38,207 nt of DNA from Prolixibacteraceae bacterium (GTDB taxonomy: Bacteria > Bacteroidota > Bacteroidia > Bacteroidales > Prolixibacteraceae), in NCBI GenBank assembly GCA_029265875.1, contig JAJUGS010000004.1, forward strand, positions 1 through 38,207, given 5' to 3'. Positions 5,397-37,579 of the stretch are shown piece by piece. Positions within the stretch are counted from its first letter, which is position 1. Each line of letters starts with the position of its first letter. The notes beneath the pieces were generated by a model that did no database searches, had not been told where the DNA came from, and saw only the letters and a list, made by a program, of their open reading frames with translations. A program made the translations under genes and the position numbers.

Positions 5397-6551
5397 ATGA
5401 CAGCAAAACAAACCAGCTGGAGCAAGCTGCTCCCCGCTTTCTTTGCCTTTATTGTAATGGGTTTTGTGGATATCATGGGAGTTGCCATCGGTTACGTGAA
5501 ACATGATTTTGGCGTATCCAATGTGATGGCGCAGTTCCTGTCAACAATGGTGTTGCTCTGGTTTTTTGTGCTGTCGGTGCCGGTGGGCATTTTGCAGGAT
5601 AAGTACGGGAAAAAGAACATGTTGATGTTAGGGATGGTGATTCAGGCGGTAGGTTTGGTATTGCCGTTTGTAAGCTATTCTTTTGAAATGATGTTTGCCT
5701 CTTTTATGTTGCTGGGAATGGGAAATACCTTTATCCAGGTTTCTGCCAACCCGTTGCTGCAGGATGTTTCGCCGGGAGATAAACTTGCCAGTTACCTGAG
5801 TACCTCGCAGTTTGTAAAAGCCATCGTTTCCATGTTGGGGCCCATCATTGCCGGAAAAGTAATGGCAACCTTGTTTGGCGATTGGAAACTGGTTTTGATT
5901 GTTTACGGAATAACTTCTATACTCGGTGCCTTGTGGTTGTTCTCCACGCCAATTCAGGAATCAAAACCCGACAGAAAACCGGCGTCCTTTGGTTCCTGTT
6001 TCGGATTATTGAAAAACCCGTTTATTGCTTTTATGGCCCTGTCAATCTTCCTGATTGTGGGTGCCGAAGTGTCCACCAATACCAATATTTCGAATGTTTT
6101 AATTTCGAAATTTGAAATATCCATTGAAAATGCGGCTTATGGTATCAGTGCCTTTTTTGCCGGCGAAACCATTTCGCGTCTGATAGGGGCAATTATTCTG
6201 AGTAAGATTAAACCACGCGTTTTTCTTTTGCTTACAACCCTTACTTCGCTGTTGGGAGTGGCGGGTGTGTTGATGGCACCTTCCTTTTATGTGGCATTGG
6301 CCGCCATTTTTATCATCGGACTCGGAGCTGGCAGTATGTTCCCGGTTATTTTTTCGCTGGCACTTGAAAAAATGCCCGATCGTGCCAACGAAATTTCAGG
6401 ATTGCTGATTATGGCTGTTTCAGGAGGTGCTTTTATTCCGCCGCTGGCTGGCTGGGCAAGCGACATTGTTTCGCCAGTTGCCAGTATCGGGGTAATTGGA
6501 ATTTGTTTCCTGTATATCCTGTGGGTTTCGTTTTATGTAAGAAAGATTTAA
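5397..6551 (+). CDS. MFS sugar transporter (FucP/NagP-like)
   Basis: A 384-residue, highly hydrophobic protein with about 12 membrane segments and no signal peptide. The loop between helices 2 and 3 has the MFS signature form (GILQDKYGKKNMLMLG, ~63-78), and a polar central loop (SKPDRKPASFG, ~186-196) separates two six-helix halves. The short length and the glycine-rich ANPLLQDVSPG segment after helix 4 fit the sugar:proton symporters of the FucP/NagP/GluP group. It is an inner-membrane importer. Its neighbours (Gfo/Idh/MocA oxidoreductase, sialidase-like protein) suggest it takes up a mono- or disaccharide released in the periplasm; which one cannot be read from the sequence. Confidence 0.85.
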   Translation: MTAKQTSWSKLLPAFFAFIVMGFVDIMGVAIGYVKHDFGVSNVMAQFLSTMVLLWFFVLSVPVGILQDKYGKKNMLMLGMVIQAVGLVLPFVSYSFEMMFASFMLLGMGNTFIQVSANPLLQDVSPGDKLASYLSTSQFVKAIVSMLGPIIAGKVMATLFGDWKLVLIVYGITSILGALWLFSTPIQESKPDRKPASFGSCFGLLKNPFIAFMALSIFLIVGAEVSTNTNISNVLISKFEISIENAAYGISAFFAGETISRLIGAIILSKIKPRVFLLLTTLTSLLGVAGVLMAPSFYVALAAIFIIGLGAGSMFPVIFSLALEKMPDRANEISGLLIMAVSGGAFIPPLAGWASDIVSPVASIGVIGICFLYILWVSFYVRKI

Positions 6552-13593: not shown

Positions 13594-15837
13594 TTAGTTA
13601 AAAATTAAAGCCGACGGTGGCGCATCTTCCGGTGCCGAGCCCCACTGTTTGTTTGGCTTCGAACCCATTTCGAGTTCCAGTGTGGCGCCGTTCATCAGTT
13701 CATCGTGGGTAAACCAGGTTTTGGTGAGCGGCTTTCCGTTCAGTTTTGCCGACTGGATGTATTTGTTCACCACCGAACAACCGGGCGCTTTTATGGTAAA
13801 TGTTTTTCCGTTTTCGAGCTGAATTTTTACCTCTTCAAAAACCGGACTACCGATTGTATAAATTGGCAGACCTGGTGTTACCGGATAAAATCCCATCGAC
13901 GAAAAGACCACAAAAGCGCTCATGCCACCGCCATCTTCATCGCCGGGAATACCAAAAATGTTGTCTTTGAACCACACATCGAGCAGAAAACGGATGCGTT
14001 TTTGGGTTTTCCAGGGTTCGCCGGCATAATTGTACAGGTACGGTATATGAAAACTGGGTTCGTTGCCCATGGAATATTGCCCCACATTTCCGGTGGCATC
14101 GGGGAATTTGGCCCAGAATGCGTAACGGCTTCTCCCCAGTGGTTCGCGGAAAAGCTGGTCTAAAGTTTTGGTGAATTCCTCACGTCCGCCCATCAATCCG
14201 ATTAATCCCTGAATATCCTGCTGTACATGCCACTGGTAGGTGAAAGCGTTGTTTTCGTCGTAGTAATCGCGGCCGCCGGGGCCTCCGTCAAATTTCGGGT
14301 CGATTTCAATCCACTCTCCCTTTTCATTTTTAGGCCACATCAGTTTGGTTTCGGGGCGGTACAAATTGCGGTAGTTGGCAGCCTGCCCGTTGAAATATTT
14401 GTAATCATCTTCTTTGCCAAGTTCTTTGGCCAGTTGTCCCAGCGCCCAGTCGTCGTAGCTGTGCGCCAGCGTGATGGCCACACTCTGCCGTTTTTCAAAA
14501 CCGTGTACTTCAGGATACGTTTCCTTTTCATCGGGAGCCAGTGCCGGGAAAAATCCTTTTTCGCGATAAAACACATCCAGCGCGGTTTTTGGGCCGTTTC
14601 TCCAGGGTAACATGGTGGCGTCGGTGGCGTTCTTTTTCACACCTTCGTAAGCTTTCTGCACATCATAATCACGCAGGTTTTTACGGTAGGCATCCAGAAA
14701 AACGATGGTGGAATGAAAACCGTGCATGGCGGGATTGTCCATAAAAAGTAAGGGAAACTGCGGCATCCAGCCACTTTGTTCGTACATTTTTACATACGAA
14801 TTGAGCATGTCGTTTTCCTTTTTGGTATCGAGAATCATCCGCAGCGGGTGATGTGCCAGGTAGGTATCCCACACCCAGTCATCGACATAAAACGGGCGGT
14901 CGGTTTCGTGAACCTGGTGGTCGTAAGCGCTGTAATATTTCCCGTCTTCGGTGATGTCAACCATGCGTTCGTAACAGCGGTAAAGGGCCGTGTAAAAACT
15001 GCGCTTCTGCGCTTCGGTGCCCCCCTTCACCTGTATTTTTCCCAATGTTTCCTCCCAGACAGCTTTTCCATGGTCGGCCAGTTTTTCAAACTCCCAGCCA
15101 TCAATTTCGTTCTTCAGGTTCTTTTCTGCCTGCTCGGCGCTGATAAACGAAACGGCGTATTTTAACTGAACCACCGGGTTTTTGCTTTCCGAAAAATCAG
15201 CCCACAAAACGGGTTTTCCTACCGGTTGTTCAGGAGTTCCGTTTTCTTCAATCAACACTTTTGGTTCGGTGTCGAATTCAGCATAAACAAAGGCTTTCAT
15301 CCCCTGAAACTCTTCCACTCCTGTAAATACTTTGGCCGAAACAGGTTCCCATTTCCCGGTATTTACAAGATTGAAACGCAGCCGTTTTTCGCCATTTTCA
15401 GGAAAGGTAAAGCGAAAAATGGCGCTTTTATTGCCGGGAACAAATTCGGTTGTGATTTCGTCGTCGATTAAGTAGGTTGAATAGAAAAAAGGGCGTGTAA
15501 CTTCCAGTTGATGGTCGTATGTCTGGCGATTTTTCCAGGTTCTTTTTTCAGGATTTCCGGTTCCGGGCAAAACGCCAAACAACTCGCCGTTGCGGTGCGA
15601 TGCAATGGTGAGCGGAAAAAACCGGATCTGGTCGTCGACAAAATCGGCCCGCACCGGGTACATTCTTATTACCTGGTTGGGTAATTGCGCGGTTGGCCGC
15701 GTGGGTTGCAGCAAAACGCTTACATTCCCGATGGTCGGGTCAACATACTGTGTCAGCGATTCGGGCTGTTCTTTGGTTTTGCAGGAAACTAACAGAAGTG
15801 AAACGGCTGTAAAGATGATGAAGATTTGAATTTTCAT
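13594..15837 (-). CDS. GH92-family α-mannosidase-like glycoside hydrolase, lipoprotein
   Basis: This 747-residue lipoprotein has lipobox LVSC at Cys19. The mature part starts with YVDPTIGN, the usual GH92 entry. Further GH92 signatures are DWVWDTYLAHHPL (~320), GNEPSFHIPYLYNYAG (~589), PWKTQKRIR (~608) and GDEDGGGMSAF then GFYPVTPG (~628-650). GH92 enzymes are calcium-dependent exo-α-mannosidases. Here the usual GNDDCGQMSAW loop is GDEDGGGMSAF, marking a divergent subgroup whose linkage or sugar preference may differ. Its first ~90 bases, with the upstream spacer, are duplicated in inverted orientation at 23304-23393. Confidence 0.87.
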   Translation of the reverse strand: MKIQIFIIFTAVSLLLVSCKTKEQPESLTQYVDPTIGNVSVLLQPTRPTAQLPNQVIRMYPVRADFVDDQIRFFPLTIASHRNGELFGVLPGTGNPEKRTWKNRQTYDHQLEVTRPFFYSTYLIDDEITTEFVPGNKSAIFRFTFPENGEKRLRFNLVNTGKWEPVSAKVFTGVEEFQGMKAFVYAEFDTEPKVLIEENGTPEQPVGKPVLWADFSESKNPVVQLKYAVSFISAEQAEKNLKNEIDGWEFEKLADHGKAVWEETLGKIQVKGGTEAQKRSFYTALYRCYERMVDITEDGKYYSAYDHQVHETDRPFYVDDWVWDTYLAHHPLRMILDTKKENDMLNSYVKMYEQSGWMPQFPLLFMDNPAMHGFHSTIVFLDAYRKNLRDYDVQKAYEGVKKNATDATMLPWRNGPKTALDVFYREKGFFPALAPDEKETYPEVHGFEKRQSVAITLAHSYDDWALGQLAKELGKEDDYKYFNGQAANYRNLYRPETKLMWPKNEKGEWIEIDPKFDGGPGGRDYYDENNAFTYQWHVQQDIQGLIGLMGGREEFTKTLDQLFREPLGRSRYAFWAKFPDATGNVGQYSMGNEPSFHIPYLYNYAGEPWKTQKRIRFLLDVWFKDNIFGIPGDEDGGGMSAFVVFSSMGFYPVTPGLPIYTIGSPVFEEVKIQLENGKTFTIKAPGCSVVNKYIQSAKLNGKPLTKTWFTHDELMNGATLELEMGSKPNKQWGSAPEDAPPSALIFN

Positions 15838-19844: not shown

Positions 19845-19928
19845 ACTTATATCCGTCATTTACGGATTGTTCCCTTTCTGAAAAAACAGCGAAACCTGAT
19901 AAACCCAGAAAATAAATCCCACAATAGT

Positions 19929-20849
19929 TTATCGGGCCTGAACAGTTTCCGGCATCTCCATTTCTTTCAGATGCTGCTGAATTTGCTGCTGTTTTGCATC
20001 ATGAAACTTTCTGAACGGATAAGCCACATAATCGTTGCAAATTCCCATTGCATGAAGGGCCGATTTGATAGTTTTGATGTATTTTGAAGAATAGGCCCCC
20101 ACATTGTAGATTTTTTCCTCAATCAACAGCAATTTCTTTTTCAGCCTATCAATTCGTTCAAAATCTTTTACCAGTGAAGCTTCATACAATTCCACGAAAA
20201 CGGATGGGAAAAGATTTGCCCCGCCGGCTACAGCTCCATGTCCACCGGCAATAATGGTTTCAGGAATGAATATTTCACTTCCGGCAATTACCGCAAACTC
20301 CGGAGAACTTTTGAATTCTTCGGCAAGAGCAAGCAGATAAGGAAGATTTCCTGAACTGTCCTTAATTCCAATGGCTCCGAGCTCTTTGGCTTTTTTTACT
20401 GTATTAATTGTCATGTGCATTTTGGTACACGATGGCATATTGTACAACATAAATGGCAACGGAAGAAGCGGTACAAGTTCCTCGAGATAAATAATAAACT
20501 CATTTTGCGAGATTGGCAGGTAATAAGGCGTGGAAACAACCAGTGCATCAACACCGGCGTTTTTTGCAGCTTCGGCAATTTCAAGCGACCCCTCAAAACA
20601 GGTGTCGGTAATACCAGCCACAACCGGAACCCTGCCTTTCGTAAATTCACAAACACGGTCCAGAAATTCCTTCCTGATTTCATAGCTCAGATTGGTGGCT
20701 TCACCGGTGGTCCCTAAGGCAAAAATTCCATGAACACCTCCATTCAGAATATGATTGATAAGATTTTTTAAACCTGCAGTATCGAGTTTGGTATTGCTGA
20801 CCAACGGAGTTACTATTGGTGGTATTATCCCTTTTAAAGGCAGCTTCAT
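19929..20849 (-). CDS. Dihydrodipicolinate synthase / N-acetylneuraminate lyase family aldolase
   Basis: The ATG at 20849 is preferred over the frame opening at 20966, because the barrel begins directly with MKLPLKGIIPPIVTP. The 306-residue (βα)8 enzyme carries GTTGEAT (46-52, substrate carboxylate binding), Tyr136 in LYNMPS and the Schiff-base Lys163 in GIKDSSGN. Members cleave or form 2-keto acids such as N-acetylneuraminate, 2-keto-3-deoxysugar acids or dihydrodipicolinate. Next to sialidase-like and deacetylase genes a catabolic 2-keto-3-deoxysugar lyase is likelier than lysine synthesis. It is divergent from an AraC regulator 167 bases away, its probable controller. Confidence 0.85.
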   Translation of the reverse strand: MKLPLKGIIPPIVTPLVSNTKLDTAGLKNLINHILNGGVHGIFALGTTGEATNLSYEIRKEFLDRVCEFTKGRVPVVAGITDTCFEGSLEIAEAAKNAGVDALVVSTPYYLPISQNEFIIYLEELVPLLPLPFMLYNMPSCTKMHMTINTVKKAKELGAIGIKDSSGNLPYLLALAEEFKSSPEFAVIAGSEIFIPETIIAGGHGAVAGGANLFPSVFVELYEASLVKDFERIDRLKKKLLLIEEKIYNVGAYSSKYIKTIKSALHAMGICNDYVAYPFRKFHDAKQQQIQQHLKEMEMPETVQAR

Positions 20850-20983
20850 AAAATTTATATTTTGAAGATTATTTCTGATGTTATACTCTGTGTTGACAAA
20901 GGAAAACCAATGGCACCTTATATGCTTATTGTAATTTGTTTTTTTTACATTGAATTTTGACCGCATTATTTCAGTTTTCCTTT

Positions 20984-22635: not shown

Positions 22636-23100
22636 ATGAATCAGACTACTTTAGCTGGAAAAATCAGCGCGGGCAAAACGGTTTACGGAACCTGTATTTC
22701 TTCTGCAGCGCCACTCTGGGGAAAAGCTGCCCTTATTGCAGGCCTCGATTTTGTATTTCTTGATACCGAGCACATTCCGCTTGAATGCATGGAAGTGGCG
22801 ACGCTTTGCCAGTTGTATAGTGCCATGGGAATTGCACCCATCGTTCGCATTCCTTCGCCCGACCCGTTCCGTGCCTGCCAGATGTTTGATGCCGGTGCAA
22901 CCGGGGTGGTGGCGCCTTACATCGAAACTGTTGAGCAGGCGCAGGAAATGGTGGGCGCCATCAAATACAGGCCCTTAAAAGGGAAACGTTTGCAAAAAGC
23001 GCTGCAAAACCCGCTGAAAAACGGTGCCAACATCATTCAAACCGATGAACCCGAAATTTTGATTCCATTATTGGAGAATAAAGGATTAAGGAAATTATAG
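22636..23100 (+). pseudogene. Chimeric ORF: N-terminal half of HpcH/HpaI aldolase joined to a GDPD tail
   Basis: Residues 1-~122 are the first half of an HpcH/HpaI-family class II aldolase: GTCISSAAPLWGKAAL, FVFLDTEHIPLE (Asp/Glu/His of the active site), PIVRIPSPDP and GATGVVAPYIETVEQAQEM. Family members are about 250-260 residues, so the second half, including the C-terminal metal-ligand Asp region, is missing. From about residue 122 the frame continues with a copy of the GDPD C-terminus (LKNGANIIQTDEPEIL ... LENKGLRKL), supplied by the inverted duplication. The chimera cannot be an active aldolase. With the nearby GH78 pieces, the ancestor may have been a 2-keto-3-deoxy-L-rhamnonate aldolase. 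Confidence 0.88.
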
Positions 23101-23393
23101 ATAACTAAATCGTATTTTTTGTAAAAATATTATCTCGTCCCTAAAGGGACTTAAAATGCTCGGTTAAAAAAATTTTTCTACCCATATTTAGTTCCTGACG
23201 GAACTGACCCATAGGGACATAATATGGGTAGAAAATTGATAACAAATTGATTAAAAGTTCAGTAGGAACGAAATATTAAAGGACAACAACAATAGCCTGT
23301 TTTATGAAAATTCAAATCTTCATCATCTTTACAGCAGTTTCACTTCTGTTAGTTTCCTGCAAAACCAAAGAACAGCCCGAAGCGCTGGCGCAG
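22999..23393 (+). repeat. Right copy (likely acceptor) of the ~395-bp inverted duplication
   Basis: This copy of 15748-16143, in opposite orientation, starts inside the aldolase frame and ends inside the GH78 frame. Both edges fall in short shared words (GCGCT near 22999; CTG..CAG near 23385-23393), suggesting junctions at microhomology. The ~20 scattered differences from the left copy argue that the event is old and not an assembly artefact. Confidence 0.92.
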
Positions 23394-23906
23394 CTGGGTC
23401 GGCCCGATGCAGTGTGGGATTTGATAAATCAAAAAACTTATCCAAGCTGGAACAGTATGATGGAAAAATACACCACCGTCTGCGAGTTCTGGACACTGAA
23501 ACAATCGAAAAACCATGTGATGATGGGCAGCATCGACGCGTGGTTTTACAAGTACATCGCCGGAATCCGGCTCAGTGAAGAGGCTCCGGCTTTCAAATCG
23601 TTTGTCATTCAGCCAAACTTGCTGAAAGACCTTGACCACGCATCGGGCGGCACAGAAACCATCCGGGGAAAAGTATCTTCTTCATGGAAAACTGAAAATG
23701 GTAATTTCAGTCTGAATGTGGAAATCCCCTTTAACACGACCGCTGATGTATTTGTTCCCGCTGCCGAAAAATCAGCAATCTTTGAGGGCAATCAGCCTGC
23801 CGAAAAGGTGAAAGGAATTCAATCGCTGGGTTTTGAAAACGGTTTTCATCATTTCAGGGTTGGCTCGGGGAGGTATGGTTTCTCCTGTAAAAAGAATAGC
23901 AATTAA
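23304..23906 (+). pseudogene. Chimeric ORF: GH92 lipoprotein signal joined to the C-terminal part of a GH78 α-L-rhamnosidase
   Basis: The first ~30 residues are the GH92 lipoprotein leader copied from 15837 (lipobox LVSC, Cys19, then KTKEQPE). From ~33 onward the sequence is the end of a GH78 rhamnosidase: LINQKTYPSWNSMMEK, GSIDAWFYKYIAGI and the FVIQPNLL β-domain start, to residue 200. GH78 proteins are usually 700-1000 residues, so the N-terminal domains and nearly all of the (α/α)6 barrel with the catalytic acids are gone. The frame is open and has a working-looking export signal, so a stable lipoprotein carrying only the C-terminal β-sandwich could be made, but rhamnosidase activity is not expected. 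Confidence 0.88.
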
Positions 23907-27453: not shown

Positions 27454-28473
27454 ATGAAGAAAACATCATTAAGCGACATTGCACGCCAGCTTGGAGTATC
27501 AAAAACACTTGTTTCATTGGTTTTAAATGGAAAAGCCAAAGAACACCGGATAAGTGATGAAATGAGCAACAAGGTAAAAAAACTTGCAAAAGAGTTAAAT
27601 TATAAGCCCAATCAAATTGCAAAAGGACTGAGAACCGGGCGTACCAATACAATAGGACTGATAATTGCCGACATTGCTAACCCGTTTTTTGGAAAACTCG
27701 GACGCGAAATTGAAAAAGAAGCAGCCGCTCATGGCTACCGGATTGTTTTTTGCAGCTCCGACGAAAATCCGGACAATTCACAAAAACAGATCGAAATGCT
27801 TCAGCAAGGCCAGGTTGATGGTTTTATTATTGCACCGCCAGCCGGTAGCGAAAACCAGATTCTTTCACTCAAAAGAAATAAAATTCCATTTGTACTTATC
27901 GACAGAAACTTTCCGGATATTGACACAAACTACATCGTGGTCGATAACATACAGGCCGCTTTTGAAGCCACCGACCACCTGGTCAAACAAGGATACAGCA
28001 AAATTGCCTGTGTTACCCTGAATGTACATCTTAACAACATGAACCAACGGGTCCTGGGATACAAACAGGCATTAATAGAAAATAACATTCCGGTGGATGA
28101 AGAGCTCATAAAAATGATGCCTTTCACCCACGAAAAGGATGATATCGCGGAGGCGGTTAAACAGCTCGAACCGGGCAACAAATCAAAGGTGGAAGCCATT
28201 TTTTTTGCCACCAGCAAGCTCGGTATTATGGGCCTTGAAACTTTGCATTCATTGGGTTTGCACATCCCCGGTGATATTGCTGTTGTTAGTTTTGATGACC
28301 CGGATGCTTACAAAATCAGTCAGCCACCGGTTTCTGCGATTGCCCAGCCTTTGCAGGAAATTGGCCGTGAATCGGTAAAAGTCCTGCTTGACATGATTCA
28401 TGATCGTAATGCTGAAACAAAAAAAATCGTATTGAAGGCGAAATTTATCCCCCGCAAATCAAGTGGCTTTTAA
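27454..28473 (+). CDS. LacI-family transcriptional repressor
   Basis: This 339-residue protein has the LacI helix-turn-helix at residues ~4-25 (SLSDIARQLGVSKTLVSLVL), the hinge helix region NYKPNQIAKGLRTG (~50-63) and a type-I periplasmic-binding-like sensor domain (GLIIADIANPFFGKLGREIE ... VVSFDDPDAY, ~278). It should bind a sugar or sugar phosphate and repress its own operon: the ROK and SIS genes follow after 42 and 12 bases. The neighbours make a hexose, mannose derivative or heptose-like sugar phosphate plausible as inducer. Confidence 0.92.
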   Translation: MKKTSLSDIARQLGVSKTLVSLVLNGKAKEHRISDEMSNKVKKLAKELNYKPNQIAKGLRTGRTNTIGLIIADIANPFFGKLGREIEKEAAAHGYRIVFCSSDENPDNSQKQIEMLQQGQVDGFIIAPPAGSENQILSLKRNKIPFVLIDRNFPDIDTNYIVVDNIQAAFEATDHLVKQGYSKIACVTLNVHLNNMNQRVLGYKQALIENNIPVDEELIKMMPFTHEKDDIAEAVKQLEPGNKSKVEAIFFATSKLGIMGLETLHSLGLHIPGDIAVVSFDDPDAYKISQPPVSAIAQPLQEIGRESVKVLLDMIHDRNAETKKIVLKAKFIPRKSSGF

Positions 28474-28514
28474 TTATTTGCAATTTGCTAAAACGGTAAA
28501 TCCAAAAATCAATC

Positions 28515-29495
28515 ATGGATATCACAAAAAGCTATTATTTGGGAATCGATATTGGCGGCACCAAATGTGCTGTGGTTGCCGGCGACAGTGAGTTTAATAT
28601 TTACGATAAAATACAGTTCGATACCAGAACAGCAGAAAGAGGCTGGCACGAAGTTTTTGAAGATTTTTTTGCAAACATCAACTCAATCTTTTTGAAATAT
28701 CCCAAAGAAAATCTGAAAGCAATCGGAATCAGTTGCGGGGGCCCGCTTGATTCAAAAAAAGGAATTATTTATTCGCCTCCCAATTTGCCGGGATGGGACA
28801 ATGTGCCGATTACAAGGATTTTTACTGAACGTTTCGGAGTTCCTGTTTCGATTCAGAACGATGCCAACGCCTGTGCATTGGCCGAATGGCTCATGGGCGC
28901 CGGAAAAGGAACACAGAACATGATATTCCTGACCTTTGGCACCGGGATGGGTTCAGGGTTGATTCTGAACGGTAAATTATACGCCGGAACCAATGATTTG
29001 GGTGGCGAAGTCGGTCATATCAGGCTGGCAGATGATGGCCCCGTAGGTTTTGGAAAAGCAGGCTCCTTCGAAGGGTTTTGCAGCGGTGGGGGTATTGCTC
29101 AACTGGCTGCTTCGTTTGTTATCAATAAACTGAAACAAGGTATAAAAGTTAATTTTTGCGATAATATTGAATCGGCACGGAAACTGACTGCCAAAATTGT
29201 GGCCGAAGCGGCTTTGACCGGTGATGCCGATGCTCTCGAAATTATCAGGATTTCAGGCGAATACCTGGGGCGGGGACTTTCCATCCTGATCGACATCCTG
29301 AATCCGGAATGCATTGTAATCGGGAGTATTTATGCCCGAAACCAGAATTTATTCAAACCTCATATTGAAAGAATAATCGAACGGGAAGCCATTCCTTCGG
29401 CGGTGCAGGTTTGTACCATAAAACCTGCCTTGCTGGGCGATAGCATCGGCGATTACGCCGCTCTTTGCGTTGCTCTTTACGAAAATCAGTTTTAA
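28515..29495 (+). CDS. ROK-family sugar kinase lacking the usual zinc cysteines
   Basis: A 326-residue ASKHA-fold kinase: LGIDIGGTKCAVV (~9-21, phosphate 1), ISCGGPLD (~74), QNDANACALAEW (~114, catalytic Asp), FGTGMGSGLILNG (~137) and GGEVGHIRL (~158). In most ROK kinases a CxCGxxGCxE zinc cluster follows the GH motif; here the segment reads GPVGFGKAGSFEGFCSG, so the cysteine cluster is missing. It probably phosphorylates a hexose, N-acetylhexosamine or similar sugar in the cytoplasm. It is the second gene of the LacI operon, 42 bases after the regulator and 12 before the isomerase. Confidence 0.85.
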   Translation: MDITKSYYLGIDIGGTKCAVVAGDSEFNIYDKIQFDTRTAERGWHEVFEDFFANINSIFLKYPKENLKAIGISCGGPLDSKKGIIYSPPNLPGWDNVPITRIFTERFGVPVSIQNDANACALAEWLMGAGKGTQNMIFLTFGTGMGSGLILNGKLYAGTNDLGGEVGHIRLADDGPVGFGKAGSFEGFCSGGGIAQLAASFVINKLKQGIKVNFCDNIESARKLTAKIVAEAALTGDADALEIIRISGEYLGRGLSILIDILNPECIVIGSIYARNQNLFKPHIERIIEREAIPSAVQVCTIKPALLGDSIGDYAALCVALYENQF

Positions 29496-29507
29496 AAATG
29501 CAGAAAA

Positions 29508-30146
29508 ATGAAGGGAGAAACTATTTTAACCGATTTGCTAAATCGATACAGTGAATTGCAACCCCTAAAAGAACAGATTGTTGCCGCAACCGAAATAATG
29601 ATTGACACCTACAAAAACGGAGGAAAAGTTTTGGTTTGCGGAAATGGTGGAAGTTGCTCCGATGCCGACCACATTGTGGGGGAGCTGATGAAGAGTTTTG
29701 AAGGACGCCGTCCGCTGTCAAAAGAGCTGCAGGAAAAACTTATCAACCTATCACCAGAAACCGGAAAAATGTTAGCCGAAAAACTGCAACAGGGGTTACC
29801 GGCTATTTCGTTAACAGTCCACCAGTCTTTGATAACGGCCATTGCCAACGACATCAGCGGCGAGGTGATTTATGCGCAGCAAGTGGTTGGCTGGGGAAAC
29901 AAAGGCGATGTGCTGATTGGCCTGAGCACTTCAGGAAACTCGCAGAATGTGATTGATGCCATGATTGTAGCCCGGGCAAAAGGACTCAAAACAATCGGGA
30001 TGACCGGCGAAACCGGTGGAAAAATGCGCGAATGGAGCGACGTTCTGTTAAATGTTCCTGAATGCCGTACCGCTTATGTACAGGAGTTGCATCTTCCTGT
30101 ATATCACGCAATTTGTATGATGGTGGAAATCGAATTTTTCGGATAG
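29508..30146 (+). CDS. SIS-domain sugar isomerase, GmhA/phosphoheptose-isomerase-like
   Basis: This 212-residue protein has a GmhA layout: an N-terminal helix, VLVCGNGGSCSDADHIVGELMK (~43-64), an insert (residues ~65-100), ISLTVHQSLITAIANDISGE, then GDVLIGLSTSGNSQNVIDA (~139, phosphosugar-binding SIS loop) and a C-terminal ECRTAYVQELHLPVYHAICMMVE with the catalytic Glu/His region. GmhA converts sedoheptulose 7-phosphate to D-glycero-D-manno-heptose 7-phosphate; this paralogue may use that or another ketose phosphate. It closes the LacI-ROK-SIS operon, and a terminator-like hairpin follows. Confidence 0.85.
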   Translation: MKGETILTDLLNRYSELQPLKEQIVAATEIMIDTYKNGGKVLVCGNGGSCSDADHIVGELMKSFEGRRPLSKELQEKLINLSPETGKMLAEKLQQGLPAISLTVHQSLITAIANDISGEVIYAQQVVGWGNKGDVLIGLSTSGNSQNVIDAMIVARAKGLKTIGMTGETGGKMREWSDVLLNVPECRTAYVQELHLPVYHAICMMVEIEFFG

Positions 30147-30157
30147 GATTATAAATG

Positions 30158-30198
30158 AATGACCTTTCAGCGTCGAAAGACCTGAAAGCGTCATTTTA
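30158..30198 (+). terminator. Terminator-like hairpin after the LacI-ROK-SIS operon
   Basis: AATGACCTTTCAG pairs with CTGAAAGCGTCATT (one bulged base) around a GTCGAAAGAC tip, followed by TTTAT. It starts 12 bases after the SIS stop codon. Confidence 0.7.
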
Positions 30199-30557
30199 TG
30201 GTTGGAAGAAGATAAAATTGGAATAATGCTATTTAGGTTAAAAAAATTGAAATAAAGTTTTTATGAAAAAGGTTCTTATTCGGAATGCCATTTCCAAAAC
30301 CTATTGATTCAAATAGTCAGTTAGTCCTGCTGACACCGCAGGGGTTGAATATGAATCACCTCCGGTTTTAACCGGGGGTAAATAGGAAAGAGGAAAAACC
30401 GTCCGCGAGGAGGCATTGTTCAAGGCAAAAACCTCGTTTCGGACGGAATGGCACAATCCTCCCAAAAAGTAGTTATAAAAGGGGAATACACGATGCGAGA
30501 AATTTTAAAATATTAGTATTCAAATAAATAGATATTGCTAAAACAAAAAATAAATCA
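30199..30557. repeat. Gene-free spacer with a copy of the composite hairpin repeat (30357-30448)
   Basis: No gene is seen. CCTCCGGTTTTAACCGGGGG (30358-30377) is followed by the CCGTCCGC...CGGACGG hairpin (30399-30448), the same pair and order as at 688-780. The remaining ~110 AT-rich bases before the GH38 start should hold its promoter. Confidence 0.75.
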
Positions 30558-33107
30558 ATGAATAACTACAATAGAAAATCATCGCTTACCCGCAGACAAT
30601 TTATCAATCGAACTGCGCTTGGTACTGCTGCATTGGCAGTCGCACCTGCCGGAGCACTTTTTGCCCGGCAAACATCCTGGCCTGAAAATGCAAAAGACTT
30701 AACTTTTCACATGATTGGCCATGCCCACATCGACCCGGTTTGGCTGTGGCCCTGGACAGAGGGAGTTTCCATCGTTCACAGTACGTTTCAGTCGGCATTG
30801 GACAGGATGAACGAAAATCCTGACTTCTGTTTTATCAGCAGTTCGGCCCAGTTTTATCATTGGGTGGCTGAAAACGACCCCGAAATGATGGCAAAAATCA
30901 AAAAACGGGTGGAAGAAGGCAGATGGTGCATCATGGGTGGCTGGTGGGTGGAACCCGATGTAAATATTCCTTCAGGCGAAGCAATGGTTCGTCAGGGTTT
31001 GTATGGCCAGCAAACTTTCCAGAAACTTTTTGGCAGAAAGGCAACCATCGGTTTTAACCCAGATTCGTTCGGACACACTTCTACTTTGCCGCAGATTATC
31101 AAGAAACAGGGCATGGACAAATACATGTTTATGCGTCCCGGCCCGCACGAAAAAACTTTGCCAACCGACCTTTTCTGGTGGCAGGGTGCCGATGGTACCA
31201 AAGTGCTTACCTATCGGATTCAGGAAAGTTATAACGACACCACCCTGAATGGCGACCGGATGAAAAGGGTGGCCGGCAAGGCGACCGAACAACCCATGAA
31301 AGACTTTATGTACTTTTTTGGCGCGGGCGATCATGGCGGCGGACCCACCAAAGAGAACATGAAAACTATAACGAAATTTCAAACCGAACAGGGAGCGCCA
31401 GTCATCAAATACAGCACTCCTGAAAGATATTTCAAAAAGATTGAAAGTGACAAAAATCTGAACCTGCCCACAGTAAACGACGATTTGCAACACCATGCAG
31501 TGGGTTGTTATACAGCCGAATCGGAAATAAAAAAGGGAAATCGCCACTCGGAAGCAGCGCTGGTCACTGCCGAAAAAATTGTAACCATCGGCGCAAAAGC
31601 CTGGGGGGCAAAATACCCGAAAAACGAACTGACCACAGCATGGCAAAGGGTGTTGTTTCTGCAGTTTCACGATAGCATGGCCGGCACATCACTGGTGGAA
31701 CATTCGCAGGCCGCCCGCGAAGGGTATGGTTTTGCGCTCGATACCGCCCATCAGGCAACTACCATGGCGGTACAGAAACTCGAATGGCAGATTGCTGCCG
31801 AAGACCCGGAATCTCAGTACCTCGTGGTGTTCAATCCACACGCCTGGGAAGTGGAGGAAAATATTGAATACGATTTTAACTGGGGTACCATGCACAAAGG
31901 TTCGCGGGTGGAAGATGAAACCGGGAACCCGCTCCCACACCAATGGACAGCCGGTTCAACAGAAACAGGCAGCCGCAGAAAACTGATTGTGAGGGCAAAA
32001 ATACCCGCCATGGGATACCGCCAGTTCAGGCTGCATGACGGAGATTCGGGGATGGCACCCACGCAGGTGAAAGCTGAAGAAAACAGGCTCGAAAACGAAT
32101 TCTACAGGCTGAGTTTTTCATCTGACGGCACCCTGAGTATTTTTGATAAAGAGCGCGGAAAGGAAGTTTTTGCCGGCGGACAAACCGGATGCAGAGCTTT
32201 GATTATTGACGACCCGAGCGATACCTGGAGCCACGACATCAAAACCTTCGATAAAGTAATTGGTCATTTCGAAAGGGCCGACATCAAAATACTTGAAAAT
32301 GGTCCTCTTCGTGCAACATTAAGAGTGTCCACAATTTACGGCAATTCAGCTTTGACCATCGATTGGTCGGTGGTGGCAGGTTCGCGCCACATTGACGCCA
32401 AAGTAACGCTCAACTGGCACGAGCACCTGAAAATGCTGAAGTTCTCGTTCCCTGTCGATAGCGAAAATCCGGTGCCCACTTACGAAACACCTTACGGGCA
32501 TATTGTCCGCGAGGCAAACGGCAACGAAGACCCGGGTCAGTGCTGGATTGACATTGCCGGGGCACAGGGTGGAAAATTGTTCGGTCTGTCAGTTTTAAAT
32601 GATGCAAAATATGGGTACAGTGTTCATGGAAACGACCTCCGGATTTCGGTGGCAAGGGCCGCTGTTTATGCACACCACAACCCGAAAGTGCTCGATATGA
32701 ATGCCGAGCATTACTGGATGGACCAGGGAATCCAGACTTTCAGGATGAAACTGGTGCCGCACACCGGAAGCTGGAAAGAAAACAACATTGCCCGGATCAC
32801 AGAAGAATTTATGGCTCCCGCAGTTGTCCTATACCAGGGAATACATAGCGGCAAACTGCCCAAATCGGGTTCCTTCCTTTCGTGCGACAAACCCAATGTA
32901 ATTGTTACATCTCTAAAGCAAGCCGAAGGAAATGACGATATCATCATTCGTTGTGTTGAAACAAGTGGGATTGCCACCGATGCAAAACTCGACCTGAAAT
33001 TTGCCGGTACCCAATGGGATGGCAGTTTTGGCCCTTGCGAAATCAAAACCCTCAGGATGAACAGTAAATCAAAACAAATCAAAGAGGTGAATCTTCTGGA
33101 ATCCTGA
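30558..33107 (+). CDS. Tat-exported GH38-family α-mannosidase
   Basis: This 849-residue protein starts with a twin-arginine signal (SLTRRQFINRTALG, ~9-22). GH38 hallmarks follow: GHAHIDPVWLWPW (~53-65, zinc-binding His and Asp), the GGWWVEPDVNIPSGEA region (~133) and FNPDSFGH (~166) with the nucleophile Asp ~169. The long C-terminal β-sandwich half is intact to the expected length. GH38 enzymes retain configuration and cut α-mannosides using zinc. Tat export is unusual for this mostly cytoplasmic or Sec-exported family and suggests folding with metal before export. It is followed after 43 bases by the kinase-phosphatase fusion, so mannose-type sugars may feed that pathway. Confidence 0.9.
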   Translation: MNNYNRKSSLTRRQFINRTALGTAALAVAPAGALFARQTSWPENAKDLTFHMIGHAHIDPVWLWPWTEGVSIVHSTFQSALDRMNENPDFCFISSSAQFYHWVAENDPEMMAKIKKRVEEGRWCIMGGWWVEPDVNIPSGEAMVRQGLYGQQTFQKLFGRKATIGFNPDSFGHTSTLPQIIKKQGMDKYMFMRPGPHEKTLPTDLFWWQGADGTKVLTYRIQESYNDTTLNGDRMKRVAGKATEQPMKDFMYFFGAGDHGGGPTKENMKTITKFQTEQGAPVIKYSTPERYFKKIESDKNLNLPTVNDDLQHHAVGCYTAESEIKKGNRHSEAALVTAEKIVTIGAKAWGAKYPKNELTTAWQRVLFLQFHDSMAGTSLVEHSQAAREGYGFALDTAHQATTMAVQKLEWQIAAEDPESQYLVVFNPHAWEVEENIEYDFNWGTMHKGSRVEDETGNPLPHQWTAGSTETGSRRKLIVRAKIPAMGYRQFRLHDGDSGMAPTQVKAEENRLENEFYRLSFSSDGTLSIFDKERGKEVFAGGQTGCRALIIDDPSDTWSHDIKTFDKVIGHFERADIKILENGPLRATLRVSTIYGNSALTIDWSVVAGSRHIDAKVTLNWHEHLKMLKFSFPVDSENPVPTYETPYGHIVREANGNEDPGQCWIDIAGAQGGKLFGLSVLNDAKYGYSVHGNDLRISVARAAVYAHHNPKVLDMNAEHYWMDQGIQTFRMKLVPHTGSWKENNIARITEEFMAPAVVLYQGIHSGKLPKSGSFLSCDKPNVIVTSLKQAEGNDDIIIRCVETSGIATDAKLDLKFAGTQWDGSFGPCEIKTLRMNSKSKQIKEVNLLES

Positions 33108-33150
33108 ATTTTTAAGAAATCAATCAGTTGAAAATATAAAATGAAATAAA

Positions 33151-35055
33151 GTGAAAAAGGAACAACTTCAAAAAATACTGAATGACATCAGCTCGGTGAA
33201 AATTGCTGTTTTAGGTGATTTTTGCCTCGACGCCTATTGGTTTATCGACGAATCGAAAAGTGAAATTTCCATCGAAACCGGACAGATGACAAAACCGGTT
33301 AAACAACAACGCTACTCTTTGGGTGGTGCCGGAAACGTAACCAATAACCTCACTGCTTTGGGAGTAAAAGATGTTCGCGCTTTTGGAGTTATCGGCCCCG
33401 ATCCGTTTGGGTACGAAATGGTGAAAGTGATGAAGCAAAACGGCATCAACCCCAAAAACCTGTTGGTTCAGGAAAAAGACTGGTCAACGCATGTTTATAC
33501 AAAACCGTATGTGGGCGATACCGAGCAAAGCCGCATCGACTTCGGAAATTTCAACAAACTTTCGAAACATACAGCCGACAAGCTGATTAACAACCTCATT
33601 ACTGAAATTCCGGAGGTGGATATCATCATCATCAACCAGCAGGTTTTATCAGGAATCCATACCGAATATTTCAGAAAGGAAATAACAAAAGTGATTCAGC
33701 GTTTTCAGGATAAAAAATTTATTGTTGACAGCCGGAATTACAGTGCATCGTACGAAGGAGCATACCGGAAAATGAACGATACAGAGGCTGCCATACTGGG
33801 CGGTTATAAAAAAGAGGCGACCGATGTGGTTTTGTATTCCGAAGTAAAGGAAGCTGCCCTGAAACTATTTGAAAAATTTGGGAAACCCCTGTTTATCACA
33901 CGAGGTGCGAGAGGGTCGTTAATTGTTAGCGAAAACGGAATTACCGATATTCATGGCTTGATGATTATTTCGAAAGTGGATCCGGTTGGTGCAGGCGACA
34001 GTTATCTGGCTGGTGCCGCTTCGGCGCTGGCCGCGGGTTACAGCATGGAAATCGCTGCCGAAATAGGGTCTTATGTGGCGGGTGTTACCGTGCAGAAATT
34101 ATTCCAGACCGGTACGGCAAGTCCTGAAGAAATTATGAGCATTGGTGCTGACCCCGATTTTGTTTACAGTCCCGAGCTGGCTGAAGATATTCGTCACGCC
34201 AATTACTGGAACGGCACCGAAATTGAAATCATCAACAAATGGCCTCAGCCACTGAATATTAAACATGCCATTTTCGACCACGACGGTACCATTTCAACCC
34301 TTCGCGAAGGTTGGGAGCACATCATGCAGCCCATGATGATGAAGGCCATTCTGGGCGACCATTTTCAGGATGCCGACGAAGCACTTTATCATAAAGTACA
34401 TACCCGCGTGGTTGATTTTATCGATAAAACAACAGGAATTCAGACACTTGTGCAGATGAAAGGGCTGGTTGAACTGGTGAAGGAATTTGGTTTGGTCCCG
34501 GCTGATAAAATTCTGGATGAATTTGGCTACAAAGCCATTTACAATGAAGAGCTGCTGAAAATGGTGAAAGTGCGCGAAGCCAAACTCACACGTGGAGAAC
34601 TGGCGTTGGAAGATTTTACCCTTAAAAATGCGGTTTTGCTGCTCGAAAAATTGTACAAAGCCGGTGTAAAATTATACCTCGCCAGCGGTACCGATGAGGA
34701 AGATGTTAAAAACGAAGCCCGCATTTTGGGTTACGACCACCTTTTTGAGGGCGGAATTTACGGTGCGGTGGGCGATGTAAACAAAGAGGCCAAGAAAATT
34801 GTGCTCGACAGGATTCTGAACACCATTGGCGATTCAGGAAACGGACAGGTGGCTGCTTTTGGCGATGGCCCCGTTGAAATCCGCGAAACACGCAAAAGGG
34901 GCGGAATCACAATCGGTATTGCCAGCAACGAACTCAAACGCTACAGTTTGAACGAAAGTAAACGCTCGCGTCTTATCAAAGCCGGCGCCGATGTGATTGT
35001 TCCCGATTATTCGCAACTGCCAGAACTGCTCGAATTGTTGAATGTAAAAAGCTAA
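33151..35055 (+). CDS. PfkB (HldE-like) kinase fused to a HAD phosphatase
   Basis: A GTG start gives 634 residues; the ATG at 33141 is followed at once by a stop. Residues ~1-330 form a ribokinase-fold domain closest in pattern to the heptose-7-phosphate kinase half of HldE: VLGDFCLDAYWFI (~21), SLGGAGNVTNNL, then DPVGAGDSYLAG with the catalytic Asp283. Residues ~370-634 form a HAD domain: IFDHDGT (nucleophile Asp376, acid Asp378), LASGTDEED (motif II), a motif III Lys near 548 and FGDGPVEIRE (~570-579). The HldE nucleotidyltransferase half is absent. Consecutive phosphorylation and dephosphorylation of one sugar phosphate (for example 7-phosphate to bisphosphate to 1-phosphate) would explain the fusion. 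This is inferred, not shown. Confidence 0.87.
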   Translation: MKKEQLQKILNDISSVKIAVLGDFCLDAYWFIDESKSEISIETGQMTKPVKQQRYSLGGAGNVTNNLTALGVKDVRAFGVIGPDPFGYEMVKVMKQNGINPKNLLVQEKDWSTHVYTKPYVGDTEQSRIDFGNFNKLSKHTADKLINNLITEIPEVDIIIINQQVLSGIHTEYFRKEITKVIQRFQDKKFIVDSRNYSASYEGAYRKMNDTEAAILGGYKKEATDVVLYSEVKEAALKLFEKFGKPLFITRGARGSLIVSENGITDIHGLMIISKVDPVGAGDSYLAGAASALAAGYSMEIAAEIGSYVAGVTVQKLFQTGTASPEEIMSIGADPDFVYSPELAEDIRHANYWNGTEIEIINKWPQPLNIKHAIFDHDGTISTLREGWEHIMQPMMMKAILGDHFQDADEALYHKVHTRVVDFIDKTTGIQTLVQMKGLVELVKEFGLVPADKILDEFGYKAIYNEELLKMVKVREAKLTRGELALEDFTLKNAVLLLEKLYKAGVKLYLASGTDEEDVKNEARILGYDHLFEGGIYGAVGDVNKEAKKIVLDRILNTIGDSGNGQVAAFGDGPVEIRETRKRGGITIGIASNELKRYSLNESKRSRLIKAGADVIVPDYSQLPELLELLNVKS

Positions 35056-35093
35056 ATACTAAAATAAGTTATATGGTTATTAACGATTTGTAT

Positions 35094-35162
35094 GACTCCG
35101 GAGGAGTCAAATGTTTATAGAAAAACACGTTTATATGTAAACATACGACCCCAGTGGGGTCG
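35094..35162. repeat. Two intergenic hairpins (GACTCC/GGAGTC and CGACCCC/GGGGTCG)
   Basis: GACTCC-GGA-GGAGTC (35094-35108) and CGACCCC-AGT-GGGGTCG (35146-35162) lie between the kinase-phosphatase and the deoxyhypusine-synthase-like gene. No T-run follows, so transcription may read through. Confidence 0.75.
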
Positions 35163-35225
35163 AATAACCAAATAAAAAAAGACTTTAAATAGTAAATCGT
35201 AAATAATAAAATAGTAAATCTCAAT

Positions 35226-36329
35226 ATGCCTTATCCAAAATTCGACCGTAACCTGCTCGATGTTAAACAACTGGCAAACCGCAAAAACAAGGTTTACATC
35301 GAAAGAGACCATATTCCGGTAACAGAAAAACCAAAAAACCTTTCAGAAAAGGGAGTCAGCCTCATTGAAAAAACGGCTGAAAGAATAAAAAAAGCCCGTT
35401 CGCTGAACCGTTCGGTGATGCTCACGTTTGGCGCACACACCATTAAAAACGGAATGGCTCCGACGCTTATCGCGCTGATTAAAGAAGGCTGGGTGACCCA
35501 TCTGGCCACAAACGGCGCCGGAATTATCCACGACTGGGAGTTTGCCTATCAGGGAAAATCAAGCGAAGATGTGCGTGAAAATGTCAATCTCGGGCAATTC
35601 GGAATTTGGGACGACACCGGGTTTTACATCAACCTCGCGCTGGTTGCCGGCGCTTACGAAGGACTGGGTTATGGCGAATCGGTGGGGAAAATGATTCATA
35701 CCGAGGGTTTGGATATTCCTGAACTTTCGGTTTTGTATGCCACCGCCCGCCAGAAAATGGAAACAGGACCGGTCACTGCTGCCGCTGCCATCGATTTCGC
35801 AGGCGTCATCAAACATTTCGGTTTGACGCCTGGAAGAATGAACATTCCACACCCGCACAAAAAATTTTCGGTACAGGCAAATGCTTATGAATTGGGTATT
35901 CCGTTTACCAGTCATCCCATGTTTGGGCACGATATTATTTATAACCACCCGATGAACCACGGCGCTGCCATTGGCCGCACCGCTGAAAACGATTTTCTGG
36001 CTTTTGCCAAAAGCGTGAGCAACCTCGATGACGGTGTTTACCTTTCGGTGGGTTCGGCAGTAATGTCACCCATGGTTTTCGAGAAATCGCTTTCGATGTC
36101 GCAGAACCTCGAAATACAGCGGGGCAGTCACATCGACAGGCATTACATGCTGATTGTGGATTTGGCGGAAGCCGAGTGGGACTGGTCAAAAGATGGCGAA
36201 CCACCCATGGACAACCCGGCTTATTACCTGCGTTACTGCAAAACATTTAACCGCATGGGCGGCGAAATGCACTACCTCACCGCCGATAACCGCGACTTTC
36301 TACTGGCCTTGTACCAGCAATTGCACTAA
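35226..36329 (+). CDS. Uncharacterised protein with a probable deoxyhypusine-synthase-like NAD-binding fold
   Basis: This 367-residue cytoplasmic protein has no export signal. Its central region follows the pattern of deoxyhypusine-synthase-fold enzymes: SVMLTFGAHTIKNGMAPTL, then LIKEGWVTHLATNGAGIIHD (a dinucleotide-binding-type strand followed by His-Asp), then a glycine-rich stretch and, near the C-terminus, GIPFTSHPMFGHDII, LSVGSAVMSPMVFE and an acidic DLAEAEWDWS segment. I do not see the conserved active-site Lys region of true deoxyhypusine synthase, and bacteria lack eIF5A, so the substrate must differ. It follows the kinase-phosphatase by 170 bases with no clear terminator and probably acts in the same pathway. 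Fold assignment is by eye only. Confidence 0.6.
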   Translation: MPYPKFDRNLLDVKQLANRKNKVYIERDHIPVTEKPKNLSEKGVSLIEKTAERIKKARSLNRSVMLTFGAHTIKNGMAPTLIALIKEGWVTHLATNGAGIIHDWEFAYQGKSSEDVRENVNLGQFGIWDDTGFYINLALVAGAYEGLGYGESVGKMIHTEGLDIPELSVLYATARQKMETGPVTAAAAIDFAGVIKHFGLTPGRMNIPHPHKKFSVQANAYELGIPFTSHPMFGHDIIYNHPMNHGAAIGRTAENDFLAFAKSVSNLDDGVYLSVGSAVMSPMVFEKSLSMSQNLEIQRGSHIDRHYMLIVDLAEAEWDWSKDGEPPMDNPAYYLRYCKTFNRMGGEMHYLTADNRDFLLALYQQLH

Positions 36330-36644: not shown

Positions 36645-37579
36645 TCAAGTTGTAATATTAAGCTGTTCTCTTACTTCAGCAATGGTTTTTCCTGTATCAG
36701 TTTTCCAGGAAGTCCATCCATTTACTGTTTTTCTCTCGCTACCAGCATCCTGAATTCCAGCAAGTGCGGCATAACTTGGACTAGAATAAATCTGACCCAT
36801 TAATTGAAGAGAACCATCTTCTAAAATAATAGCCGTATATTTCTTTTGTGCTCCGCCATTTCGCGGTTTATAAATCATAGTCAGTTTTTGATTTACTGAT
36901 AGTAACCTAGAATTTATCAGGTCAAGAATACCGATATCTGAACGAGAGATTCTTCCCACTTTATTATTAGAAATACTTATTTCTTCTTCCGTATCTAATT
37001 CAGGTTTAAATTCTTCAGGAAATTCATATGCAATATTTTTAGAATTATTAAAATCGACATATTTTGTTATTACCCAAAGCTTAACATTATATTTTAAAGT
37101 TCTTGCCCATTCTTTTAAGTCGTTTGTAATGGCGTCAATTGGAACTCCAACGATTGGTTCTTTATCTAAAATCTCAGCTAAATGTTTTCGAATATTTATT
37201 TCCTTAATACCTAATTCATTAAATTTTTCTCTGGCCGTTTCATCTTTTTGATAAATATCCACGGCCAGATCTTCAAGTGTTTTCTTGGTTATATTTTGTT
37301 GAGAAGCAATCATTTGTTTTGTAACCTGCGGAGCAATATGCGACCAAACATTGTGCTGTATTAGTTCAGCTTCAACTAAATACCACTTTTTTGCAGCTAA
37401 ATCAATAGCAAAACCGTCAGGGATTGTTCCTACTCCATCACTCGTTTTTATTAGTGCTTTGGGTAGATATATTGAACTTGGCCCAAAAATATATTCATAA
37501 TTGTTATGACAACATTCTCAATTTCACTTTCATTTATAAATGGAGCTTTTATAAATTTTTTGTCAGTTGTAATTATCAT
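36645..37579 (-). pseudogene. Frameshifted DUF4357 nuclease-like protein
   Basis: The intact frame from 37313 down covers 222 residues ending in a DUF4357 domain (GQIYSSPSYAALAGIQDAG ... TVNGWTSWKTDTGKTIAEV), a domain linked to restriction and defence proteins. Upstream, an ATG at 37579 opens TTDKKFIKAPFINESEIENVV. It must shift frame near 37500-37510 to continue as NYEYIFGPSSIYLPKALIK and then DGFAIDLAAKKWYLVEAEL, a pattern like a PD-(D/E)XK nuclease core, which joins the lower frame. One missing base explains the break. The gene is clearly more AT-rich than its neighbours, which suggests horizontal transfer. A short product from an internal ATG remains possible. Confidence 0.78.

What the first reader, a model, noticed from the sequence alone, without database searches (positions are those of the whole stretch)
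27454..36329. Candidate undescribed sugar-phosphate pathway: LacI, ROK, SIS, GH38, PfkB-HAD, DHS-like
The genes resemble the first steps of ADP-heptose synthesis (GmhA-like isomerase, HldE-like kinase, phosphatase) but are set up like a catabolic locus: LacI control, a sugar kinase and an exported mannosidase. The nucleotidyltransferase needed for ADP-heptose is absent from the window, and an unusual deoxyhypusine-synthase-like protein sits at the end. One reading is degradation or remodelling of a mannose- or heptose-type sugar through a bisphosphate intermediate. This is inference from gene families and context.
Basis: partly seen in the sequence, partly recalled or inferred. Interest (0 to 1): 0.75.

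Follow-up and report, generated by a model that had tools for sequence, protein, structure and literature searches.

The report
Undescribed mannoside-linked sugar-phosphate gene cassette
A set of bacterial genes that looks like the early steps of making an LPS heptose sugar turns out to be a separate, widely conserved and uncharacterised sugar-processing cassette, usually sitting with mannose-cutting enzymes and sugar importers, and built around an enzyme family whose chemistry is unknown.

Summary
In detail: six same-strand genes (LacI, ROK, GmhA-like SIS, Tat-exported GH38, PfkB-HAD fusion, deoxyhypusine-synthase-like protein) occupy 27454-36329. The last protein belongs to the uncharacterised NCBIfam GSU2086 family. 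The proposed co-occurrence check was strongly positive: in 247 genomes of the order, the DHS-like protein and the HAD domain hit exactly the same 8 genomes. The DHS-like form recurs in about 490 stretches of public genomes from many phyla. PfkB-HAD lies directly upstream in 48 of 65 testable loci, commonly with SIS, an AGE-family epimerase, an SSF symporter, GH38 or GH92. No HldC-type adenylyltransferase was found in 84 neighbourhoods. The genome carries its own heptose kinase, adenylyltransferase and HldD elsewhere, so the cassette is a separate pathway, although its SIS is the genome's only clear GmhA match. In KSB1 and Calditrichaceae the cassette isomerase passes the curated GmhA cut-off, pointing to a heptose- or mannose-type aldose phosphate. 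Unexpected lead: genomes with canonical GSU2086 all have HldC but none has HldD (0/14, against 26/27 of other HldC-positive genomes), suggesting this NAD-fold family replaces the heptose 6-epimerase. Substrate and direction of the window pathway are unproven.

The parts
27454..28473 (+). LacI-family transcription regulator
   Evidence: PF00356 + Peripla_BP_3; 61-69% identical homologues head the same cassette in L063-L067, L086, L088, L094, L096
28515..29495 (+). ROK-family sugar kinase
   Evidence: PF00480 179 bits; glucokinase-type TIGR00744 192 bits, below cut-off; also inside the type-C four-gene block L186-L189
29508..30146 (+). SIS sugar-phosphate isomerase, GmhA-like
   Evidence: GmhA model 167.6 bits, below the 209.45 cut-off; GmhA-type H/E and Q/H active-site motifs (DHIVGEL, VQELH...H) kept; only clear GmhA-model match in the own genome
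29715..29789 (+). 25-residue insertion (residues 70-94) in the SIS protein relative to GmhA structures
   Evidence: alignment to 2xbl/2x3y and to canonical GmhA of relatives; absent from the GmhA-type isomerases of the cassette in KSB1/Calditrichaceae
30558..33107 (+). GH38 alpha-mannosidase with Tat-type signal peptide
   Evidence: PF01074, PF09261, PF07748, PF17677; RRQFINR...AALAVAPAGALFA N-terminus; GH38 also next to the DHS or HAD gene in Nitrospiraceae L129, KSB1 L138, Hydrogenedentes L219
33151..35055 (+). bifunctional PfkB sugar kinase - HAD phosphatase fusion
   Evidence: PF00294 residues 37-316, PF00702 residues 370-577; closest kinase model HldE N-domain (rfaE_dom_I 128.8 bits; PDB 4e84); HAD domain structurally nearest phosphoglycolate-phosphatase/beta-phosphoglucomutase type
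35226..36329 (+). GSU2086-family protein (type B, 367 aa), deoxyhypusine-synthase/ArgZ-like NAD-fold enzyme of unknown reaction
   Evidence: NF052581 337.9 bits over cut-off 250; AlphaFold2 model pLDDT 89.5, Foldseek best hits deoxyhypusine synthase 7cmc and AgrE/ArgZ
13594..15837 (-). GH92 alpha-mannosidase, possibly same substrate route (not adjacent)
   Evidence: PF07971 535 bits; GH92 genes lie inside the cassette in 17 of 45 related Bacteroidota loci
5397..6551 (+). MFS transporter, possibly same substrate route (not adjacent)
   Evidence: clusters with MFS genes inside cassette loci of relatives (cluster 7)

Best explanation
A conserved, uncharacterised sugar-phosphate cassette, separate from ADP-heptose synthesis, serves the use of an alpha-linked manno-configured sugar. 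SHOWN by sequence: gene content, conservation, linkage, and absence of a linked nucleotidyltransferase. INFERRED mechanism: exported alpha-mannosidase-type enzymes (GH38, often GH92) release the sugar; an SSF or MFS symporter imports it; the ROK kinase makes the terminal phosphate (heptose-7-P, or mannose-6-P). The GmhA-like SIS isomerase interconverts the aldose phosphate with its ketose phosphate (sedoheptulose-7-P or fructose-6-P). The HldE-like PfkB domain adds a second phosphate at C1 and the fused HAD domain removes one, so the fusion either moves the phosphate between positions through a bisphosphate or tunes a bisphosphate pool. The GSU2086/DHS-fold protein acts as an NAD-dependent (hydride-borrowing) epimerase on the manno-type sugar phosphate. 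Preferred substrate: glycero-manno-heptose, for example from LPS of dead bacteria, drained to sedoheptulose-7-P; mannose is the main alternative.
For: Identical phylogenetic profile of DHS and HAD domain, 8/8 among 247 genomes in 5 families. PfkB-HAD directly upstream of DHS in 48/65 testable loci; HAD in 44/45 Bacteroidota loci. No HldC in 84 loci (1.2 Mb). Own genome has its own HldE-type kinase C250 (303.9 bits), HldC C311 (178.4) and HldD C391 (366.1). Two DHS subtypes (B, C), each one side of a well-supported branch, carry the same cassette, and G402 keeps an intact C cassette with a deletion remnant of B. Mannosidase linkage recurs: GH38 in 20 loci, GH92 in 19, 0 of 14 control loci; independently in Nitrospiraceae, KSB1, Hydrogenedentes. 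Heptose side: cassette isomerase of KSB1 L130 and Calditrichaceae L127 passes the GmhA cut-off (212.2, 211.6 against 209.45), and the KSB1 genome shows no HldC and no HldD. Canonical GSU2086 is in an operon with hldE and gmhA in Geobacter with the same mutant phenotype (PMC5585712), lies close to a GT9 heptosyltransferase in 13 of 14 Bacteroidota-phylum loci, and is mutually exclusive with HldD.
Against: No biochemistry; substrate and direction are inference. GH38/GH92 are known for mannose, not heptose. The kinase and the window SIS are well below the curated heptose-enzyme cut-offs. In several outgroup genomes the DHS gene stands alone or the HAD is unfused or absent (10 of 16 have a HAD homologue). 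ROK, LacI and GH38 are present in only a minority of loci. The DHS structural match is remote (TM 0.38-0.53). Why a catabolic route would need kinase plus phosphatase is not explained. The HldD exclusion may reflect one clade.
Confidence: 0.42

Rival explanations
1. Plain mannose catabolism: GH38/GH92 release mannose, ROK makes mannose-6-P, the SIS protein is a phosphomannose isomerase derived from GmhA, PfkB acts on fructose-6-P or mannose-6-P, and the HAD and DHS-like proteins are repair or side-product enzymes.
For: GH38 and GH92 linkage; AGE-family epimerase related to cellobiose/mannose epimerases; ROK kinase; SIS insertion suggests altered specificity.
Against: Does not explain why PfkB-HAD and DHS are the invariant core while ROK/GH38 are optional, nor the GmhA-grade isomerase in KSB1/Calditrichaceae, nor the Geobacter hldE-GSU2086-gmhA operon.
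Confidence: 0.27
2. Ordinary or variant biosynthesis: the cassette supplies heptose-1-phosphate to an unlinked adenylyltransferase (HldC), i.e. it is the ADP-heptose pathway or a branch of it for a surface glycan.
For: HldC present on C311; window-type SIS is the only clear GmhA-model match in the own genome, G639 and G402; in G568 the fusion is the best HldE-kinase match.
Against: Most of these genomes carry a separate HldE-type kinase (292-318 bits); no HldC in 84 cassette loci; no HldC/HldD in KSB1 G645 and none usable in G417; LacI, symporters and secreted mannosidases alongside.
Confidence: 0.15
3. Amine chemistry: as in deoxyhypusine synthase and ornithine cyclodeaminase, the DHS-like enzyme oxidises an amino sugar or glycated amine, and the cassette degrades amino sugars or Amadori-type compounds.
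For: Closest folds act on amines; PfkB and SIS families also serve fructoselysine catabolism (weak 35.6-bit hit); DegT aminotransferase and GFO/IDH next to type-C cassettes.
Against: The SIS is GmhA-type, not a deglycase; no recurrent aminotransferase or deacetylase in type-B loci; heptose-gene linkage of type A.
Confidence: 0.08

Closest known systems
ADP-L-glycero-D-manno-heptose biosynthesis (GmhA, HldE, GmhB, HldD)
   Same: Same order of enzyme types: SIS isomerase, HldE-N-like PfkB kinase, HAD phosphatase; GSU2086 family also sits in true heptose operons
   Different: No adenylyltransferase; kinase 128.8 of 345 bits, SIS 167.6 of 209.45 bits; HAD is a helical-cap beta-PGM/phosphoglycolate type and gives no GmhB model hit; ordinary pathway encoded separately
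Deoxyhypusine synthase / ArgZ-AgrE ornithine cyclodeaminase domain / archaeal LOR-SDH
   Same: Fold and N-terminal NAD-binding stretch
   Different: Below the Pfam DS cut-off; TM 0.38-0.53; about 9-17% identity; genomic partners are sugar kinases and isomerases, not amine metabolism
Bacteroidota alpha-mannan / N-glycan utilisation loci (GH38, GH92)
   Same: Secreted GH38/GH92 alpha-mannosidases with regulator, transporter and ROK kinase
   Different: No SusC/SusD found in the window scans; core is intracellular SIS, PfkB-HAD and DHS, conserved without mannosidases in other phyla
hldE-GSU2086-gmhA operon of Geobacter sulfurreducens (GSU2085-2087)
   Same: GSU2086-family protein between a heptose kinase and a heptose isomerase; all three matter for electrode growth (PMC5585712)
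   Different: There hldE carries the adenylyltransferase and the setting is biosynthetic; the window protein is the longer type B

Membership tests
GSU2086 family (NF052581) | curated score above 250 bits over the full model | tested here: met
   337.9 bits, model 1-300/301
Deoxyhypusine synthase (PF01916) | Pfam gathering score 27 | tested here: not met
   19.8 bits over residues 49-110 only
Deoxyhypusine synthase (PF01916) | fold of the NAD-dependent DHS/ArgZ group | tested here: met
   Foldseek probability 1.00, E 5e-7, TM up to 0.53; remote
Deoxyhypusine synthase (PF01916) | spermidine/eIF5A activity | not testable with these tools
   needs assay; no eIF5A role expected in bacteria (general knowledge)
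ADP-heptose biosynthesis | GmhA isomerase at curated cut-off | tested here: not met
   window 167.6 of 209.45 bits; but KSB1/Calditrichaceae cassette isomerases do pass
ADP-heptose biosynthesis | HldE N-domain kinase at curated cut-off | tested here: not met
   128.8 of 345 bits; a 303.9-bit match (also under the 345 cut-off) lies elsewhere at C250
ADP-heptose biosynthesis | linked adenylyltransferase | tested here: not met
   none in window; 0 of 84 related loci; unlinked HldC at C311
ADP-heptose biosynthesis | GmhB-type phosphatase | tested here: not met
   no GmhB model hit at E<=1e-3; beta-PGM-type fold
GH38 alpha-mannosidase | GH38 catalytic, middle and C-terminal domains | tested here: met
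   four Pfam domains over cut-off; closest solved structures Ams1-type alpha-mannosidases
Polysaccharide utilisation locus | SusC/SusD pair | tested here: not met
   not among Pfam hits of the window ORFs scanned

The most novel reading that the evidence does not exclude
The GSU2086 family is a deoxyhypusine-synthase-fold, NAD-dependent manno-heptose (phosphate) 6-epimerase, a non-homologous replacement of HldD in canonical (type A) genomes. The window cassette (types B and C) is then a dedicated catabolic route for bacterial heptoses: kinase, 6-epimerase, GmhA-like isomerase to sedoheptulose-7-P, with a kinase-phosphatase fusion.
Probability: 0.18. Interest if true: 0.85.

Novelty: new variant of a known kind. 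Interest (0 to 1): 0.6.

Why it matters
The cassette occurs in hundreds of genomes across many phyla, mostly uncultured sediment and water bacteria, and its core enzyme family has no assigned reaction. If the heptose reading is right it would be a dedicated way to recycle LPS heptoses, and canonical GSU2086 would fill the missing epimerase step in genomes that have HldC but no HldD. Both ideas can be tested with purified enzymes and defined sugar phosphates.

Tried and rejected
Membership in ordinary ADP-heptose synthesis: rejected for PfkB-HAD and DHS because separate canonical-type genes exist, left open for the SIS. Deoxyhypusine synthase proper: rejected on score. Viral carriage: no relative in viral contigs. 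Shared LacI operator: a simple palindrome search upstream of LacI (10 loci) and GH38 (19 loci) found nothing shared. Literature: GSU2086 appears in one open paper only; searches for the cassette, for DHS-like bacterial sugar enzymes, for heptose catabolism and for alternative epimerases found no prior description; subscription papers were not searchable. Sulfoquinovose-type routes were considered because of the AGE and PfkB genes, but no matching aldolase or sulfoquinovosidase was seen; not formally tested.
Full report
1. The observation. Six same-strand ORFs fill 27454-36329 with gaps of 41, 12, 411, 43 and 170 bp. Family scans confirm LacI, ROK, SIS, a four-domain GH38 with a Tat-like signal, and a PfkB-HAD fusion. 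The last protein is only marginally like deoxyhypusine synthase (19.8 bits, below the 27-bit cut-off) but is a clear member of NCBIfam NF052581, the uncharacterised GSU2086 family (337.9 bits, cut-off 250). No solved structure is found by single-sequence search; a profile finds the ArgZ/AgrE cyclodeaminase domain weakly; an AlphaFold2 model (pLDDT 89.5) is closest to deoxyhypusine synthase and AgrE/ArgZ.

2. Co-occurrence. Over 247 genomes of the same order the window DHS protein hits 8 genomes and the window HAD domain hits the same 8 and no other; a random coincidence would have probability about 3e-15, a figure that ignores shared ancestry, though the 8 lie in 5 families. In public genomes about 490 stretches encode the type-B protein, from Bacteroidota to Lentisphaerae, Kiritimatiellaeota, Hydrogenedentes, KSB1, Calditrichota, Omnitrophota, Planctomycetota and others by record title (mostly MAGs, so some labels may be misbinned). 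The 80 best were fetched. PfkB-HAD is immediately upstream of DHS in 48 of 65 loci with enough upstream sequence; HAD is present in 44 of 45 of the closest loci. Frequent partners over 84 loci: SIS 36, AGE epimerase 38, SSF symporter 36, GH38 20, GH92 19, ROK 19, MFS 17, LacI 9; in 14 control loci from cassette-bearing genomes, GH38, GH92 and AGE are all zero.

3. Two more forms of the protein. The family splits into three groups, each one side of a well-supported branch: A (about 315 aa, canonical), B (about 367 aa, window) and C (343 aa). Type C sits in a contiguous block DHS-PfkB-HAD-ROK-SIS in four genomes, in some next to GH92 or an exo-glucosaminidase-type GH2. One genome (G402) has an intact C block and a B block reduced to SIS plus fragments of PfkB and DHS, which suggests that B and C are interchangeable. 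Type A lies close to a GT9 heptosyltransferase in 13 of 14 loci, and in Geobacter lies between hldE and gmhA, all three needed for electrode growth (PMC5585712).

4. Relation to ADP-heptose synthesis. The own genome has a separate HldE-type kinase (C250, 303.9 bits, against 130.9 for the window), an HldC adenylyltransferase (C311, 178.4 bits, next to a gene whose start reads as RadA) and HldD (C391, 366.1 bits). No HldC occurs in any of 84 cassette loci. The cassette is present in G417, which has no HldD and only a 26-residue HldC scrap, and in KSB1 G645, which has neither. Yet the window-type SIS is the only clear GmhA-model match in G000, G402 (two copies, both in cassettes) and M. anaerophila (G639), so it may double as GmhA. 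Most genomes here are drafts.

5. Enzyme details. The SIS keeps the GmhA motifs carrying the active-site H/E and Q/H residues (assigned from general knowledge of GmhA) but has a 25-residue insertion. In KSB1 and Calditrichaceae the isomerase of the same cassette has no insertion and passes the curated GmhA cut-off. The kinase domain is closer to HldE-N than to other PfkB families (128.8 bits against 58.8 for ribokinase) and its best solved relative is heptose-7-phosphate kinase 4e84. The HAD domain keeps the DxD, S/T, K and GDG motifs and resembles phosphoglycolate phosphatase, beta-phosphoglucomutase and MtlD phosphatase structures. In several other phyla the HAD is a free-standing gene, in Hydrogenedentes next to GH38.

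6. Mannoside and uptake links. GH38 next to DHS in Nitrospiraceae L129 and KSB1 L138, GH38 next to HAD in Hydrogenedentes L219, and LacI, SIS and HAD with part of a GH38 in Chlorobiota L217 are independent associations. SSF symporters flank DHS or PfkB-HAD in KSB1, Calditrichaceae and Chlorobiota, and an AGE epimerase flanks PfkB-HAD in Kiritimatiellaeota. This favours use of an imported sugar.

7. The unexpected lead. All 14 genomes with type A have HldC over cut-off and none has HldD over cut-off. Of 21 HldC-positive genomes without type A, 20 have HldD, as do 6 of 6 tested cassette genomes with HldC. Fisher p = 4e-10, uncorrected for phylogeny; the 14 lie in six families that may form one clade. 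With the NAD fold and the heptose linkage, this suggests that GSU2086 does the job of HldD. Whether Geobacter lacks HldD was not tested.

8. Conclusion. Shown: architecture, conservation, linkage, independence of the kinase and DHS genes from the standard pathway. Inferred: substrate (heptose preferred, mannose close behind), catabolic direction, and an epimerase role for the DHS-like protein. No prior description was found in the open literature searched.

Noticed in passing
L002-L015, L048-L061; G055, G200 and 12 further type-A genomes: Canonical GSU2086 (type A) genomes have HldC but never HldD, while other HldC-positive genomes nearly all have HldD: a candidate non-orthologous heptose 6-epimerase.
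   Followed up: partly
window 29508-30146: This SIS gene is the only clear match to the GmhA model in the own genome although an HldE-type kinase, HldC and HldD are present elsewhere; the same holds for Mariniphaga anaerophila and, with two cassette-linked copies, G402.
   Followed up: partly
window 22636-23906: An HpcH/HpaI aldolase ORF of only 154 aa and the C-terminal 200 aa of a GH78 rhamnosidase: both look like truncated gene remnants.
   Followed up: no
window 17135-17605 and about 23135-23240: An IS200-like Y1 transposase gene, and elsewhere in the window short inverted repeats (GTCCC..GGGAC, CTACCCATATT..AATATGGGTAG) of REP type; possibly related.
   Followed up: no
window 6652-7842, 18621-20966: Two BNR/sialidase-like genes, one beside a DHDPS-family aldolase, with YdjC and AraC genes: looks like another sugar-acid utilisation locus.
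   Followed up: no
L183 9070-12257: In G568 a second catabolic-looking trio: SIS, ROK and SSF symporter without PfkB-HAD or DHS.
   Followed up: no
L217 1567-7181: Chlorobiota cluster with part of a GH38, two LacI genes, L-fucose isomerase, SIS and a free-standing HAD of the cassette type.
   Followed up: no
L047 5441-6831: In G402 the type-B cassette is reduced to SIS plus truncated PfkB and DHS fragments while an intact type-C cassette lies on another contig (L186).
   Followed up: partly
window 12708-13538 and 36645-37313: Mrr_cat plus ATP-cone protein, and a RAMA-domain protein directly downstream of the cassette on the opposite strand.
   Followed up: no
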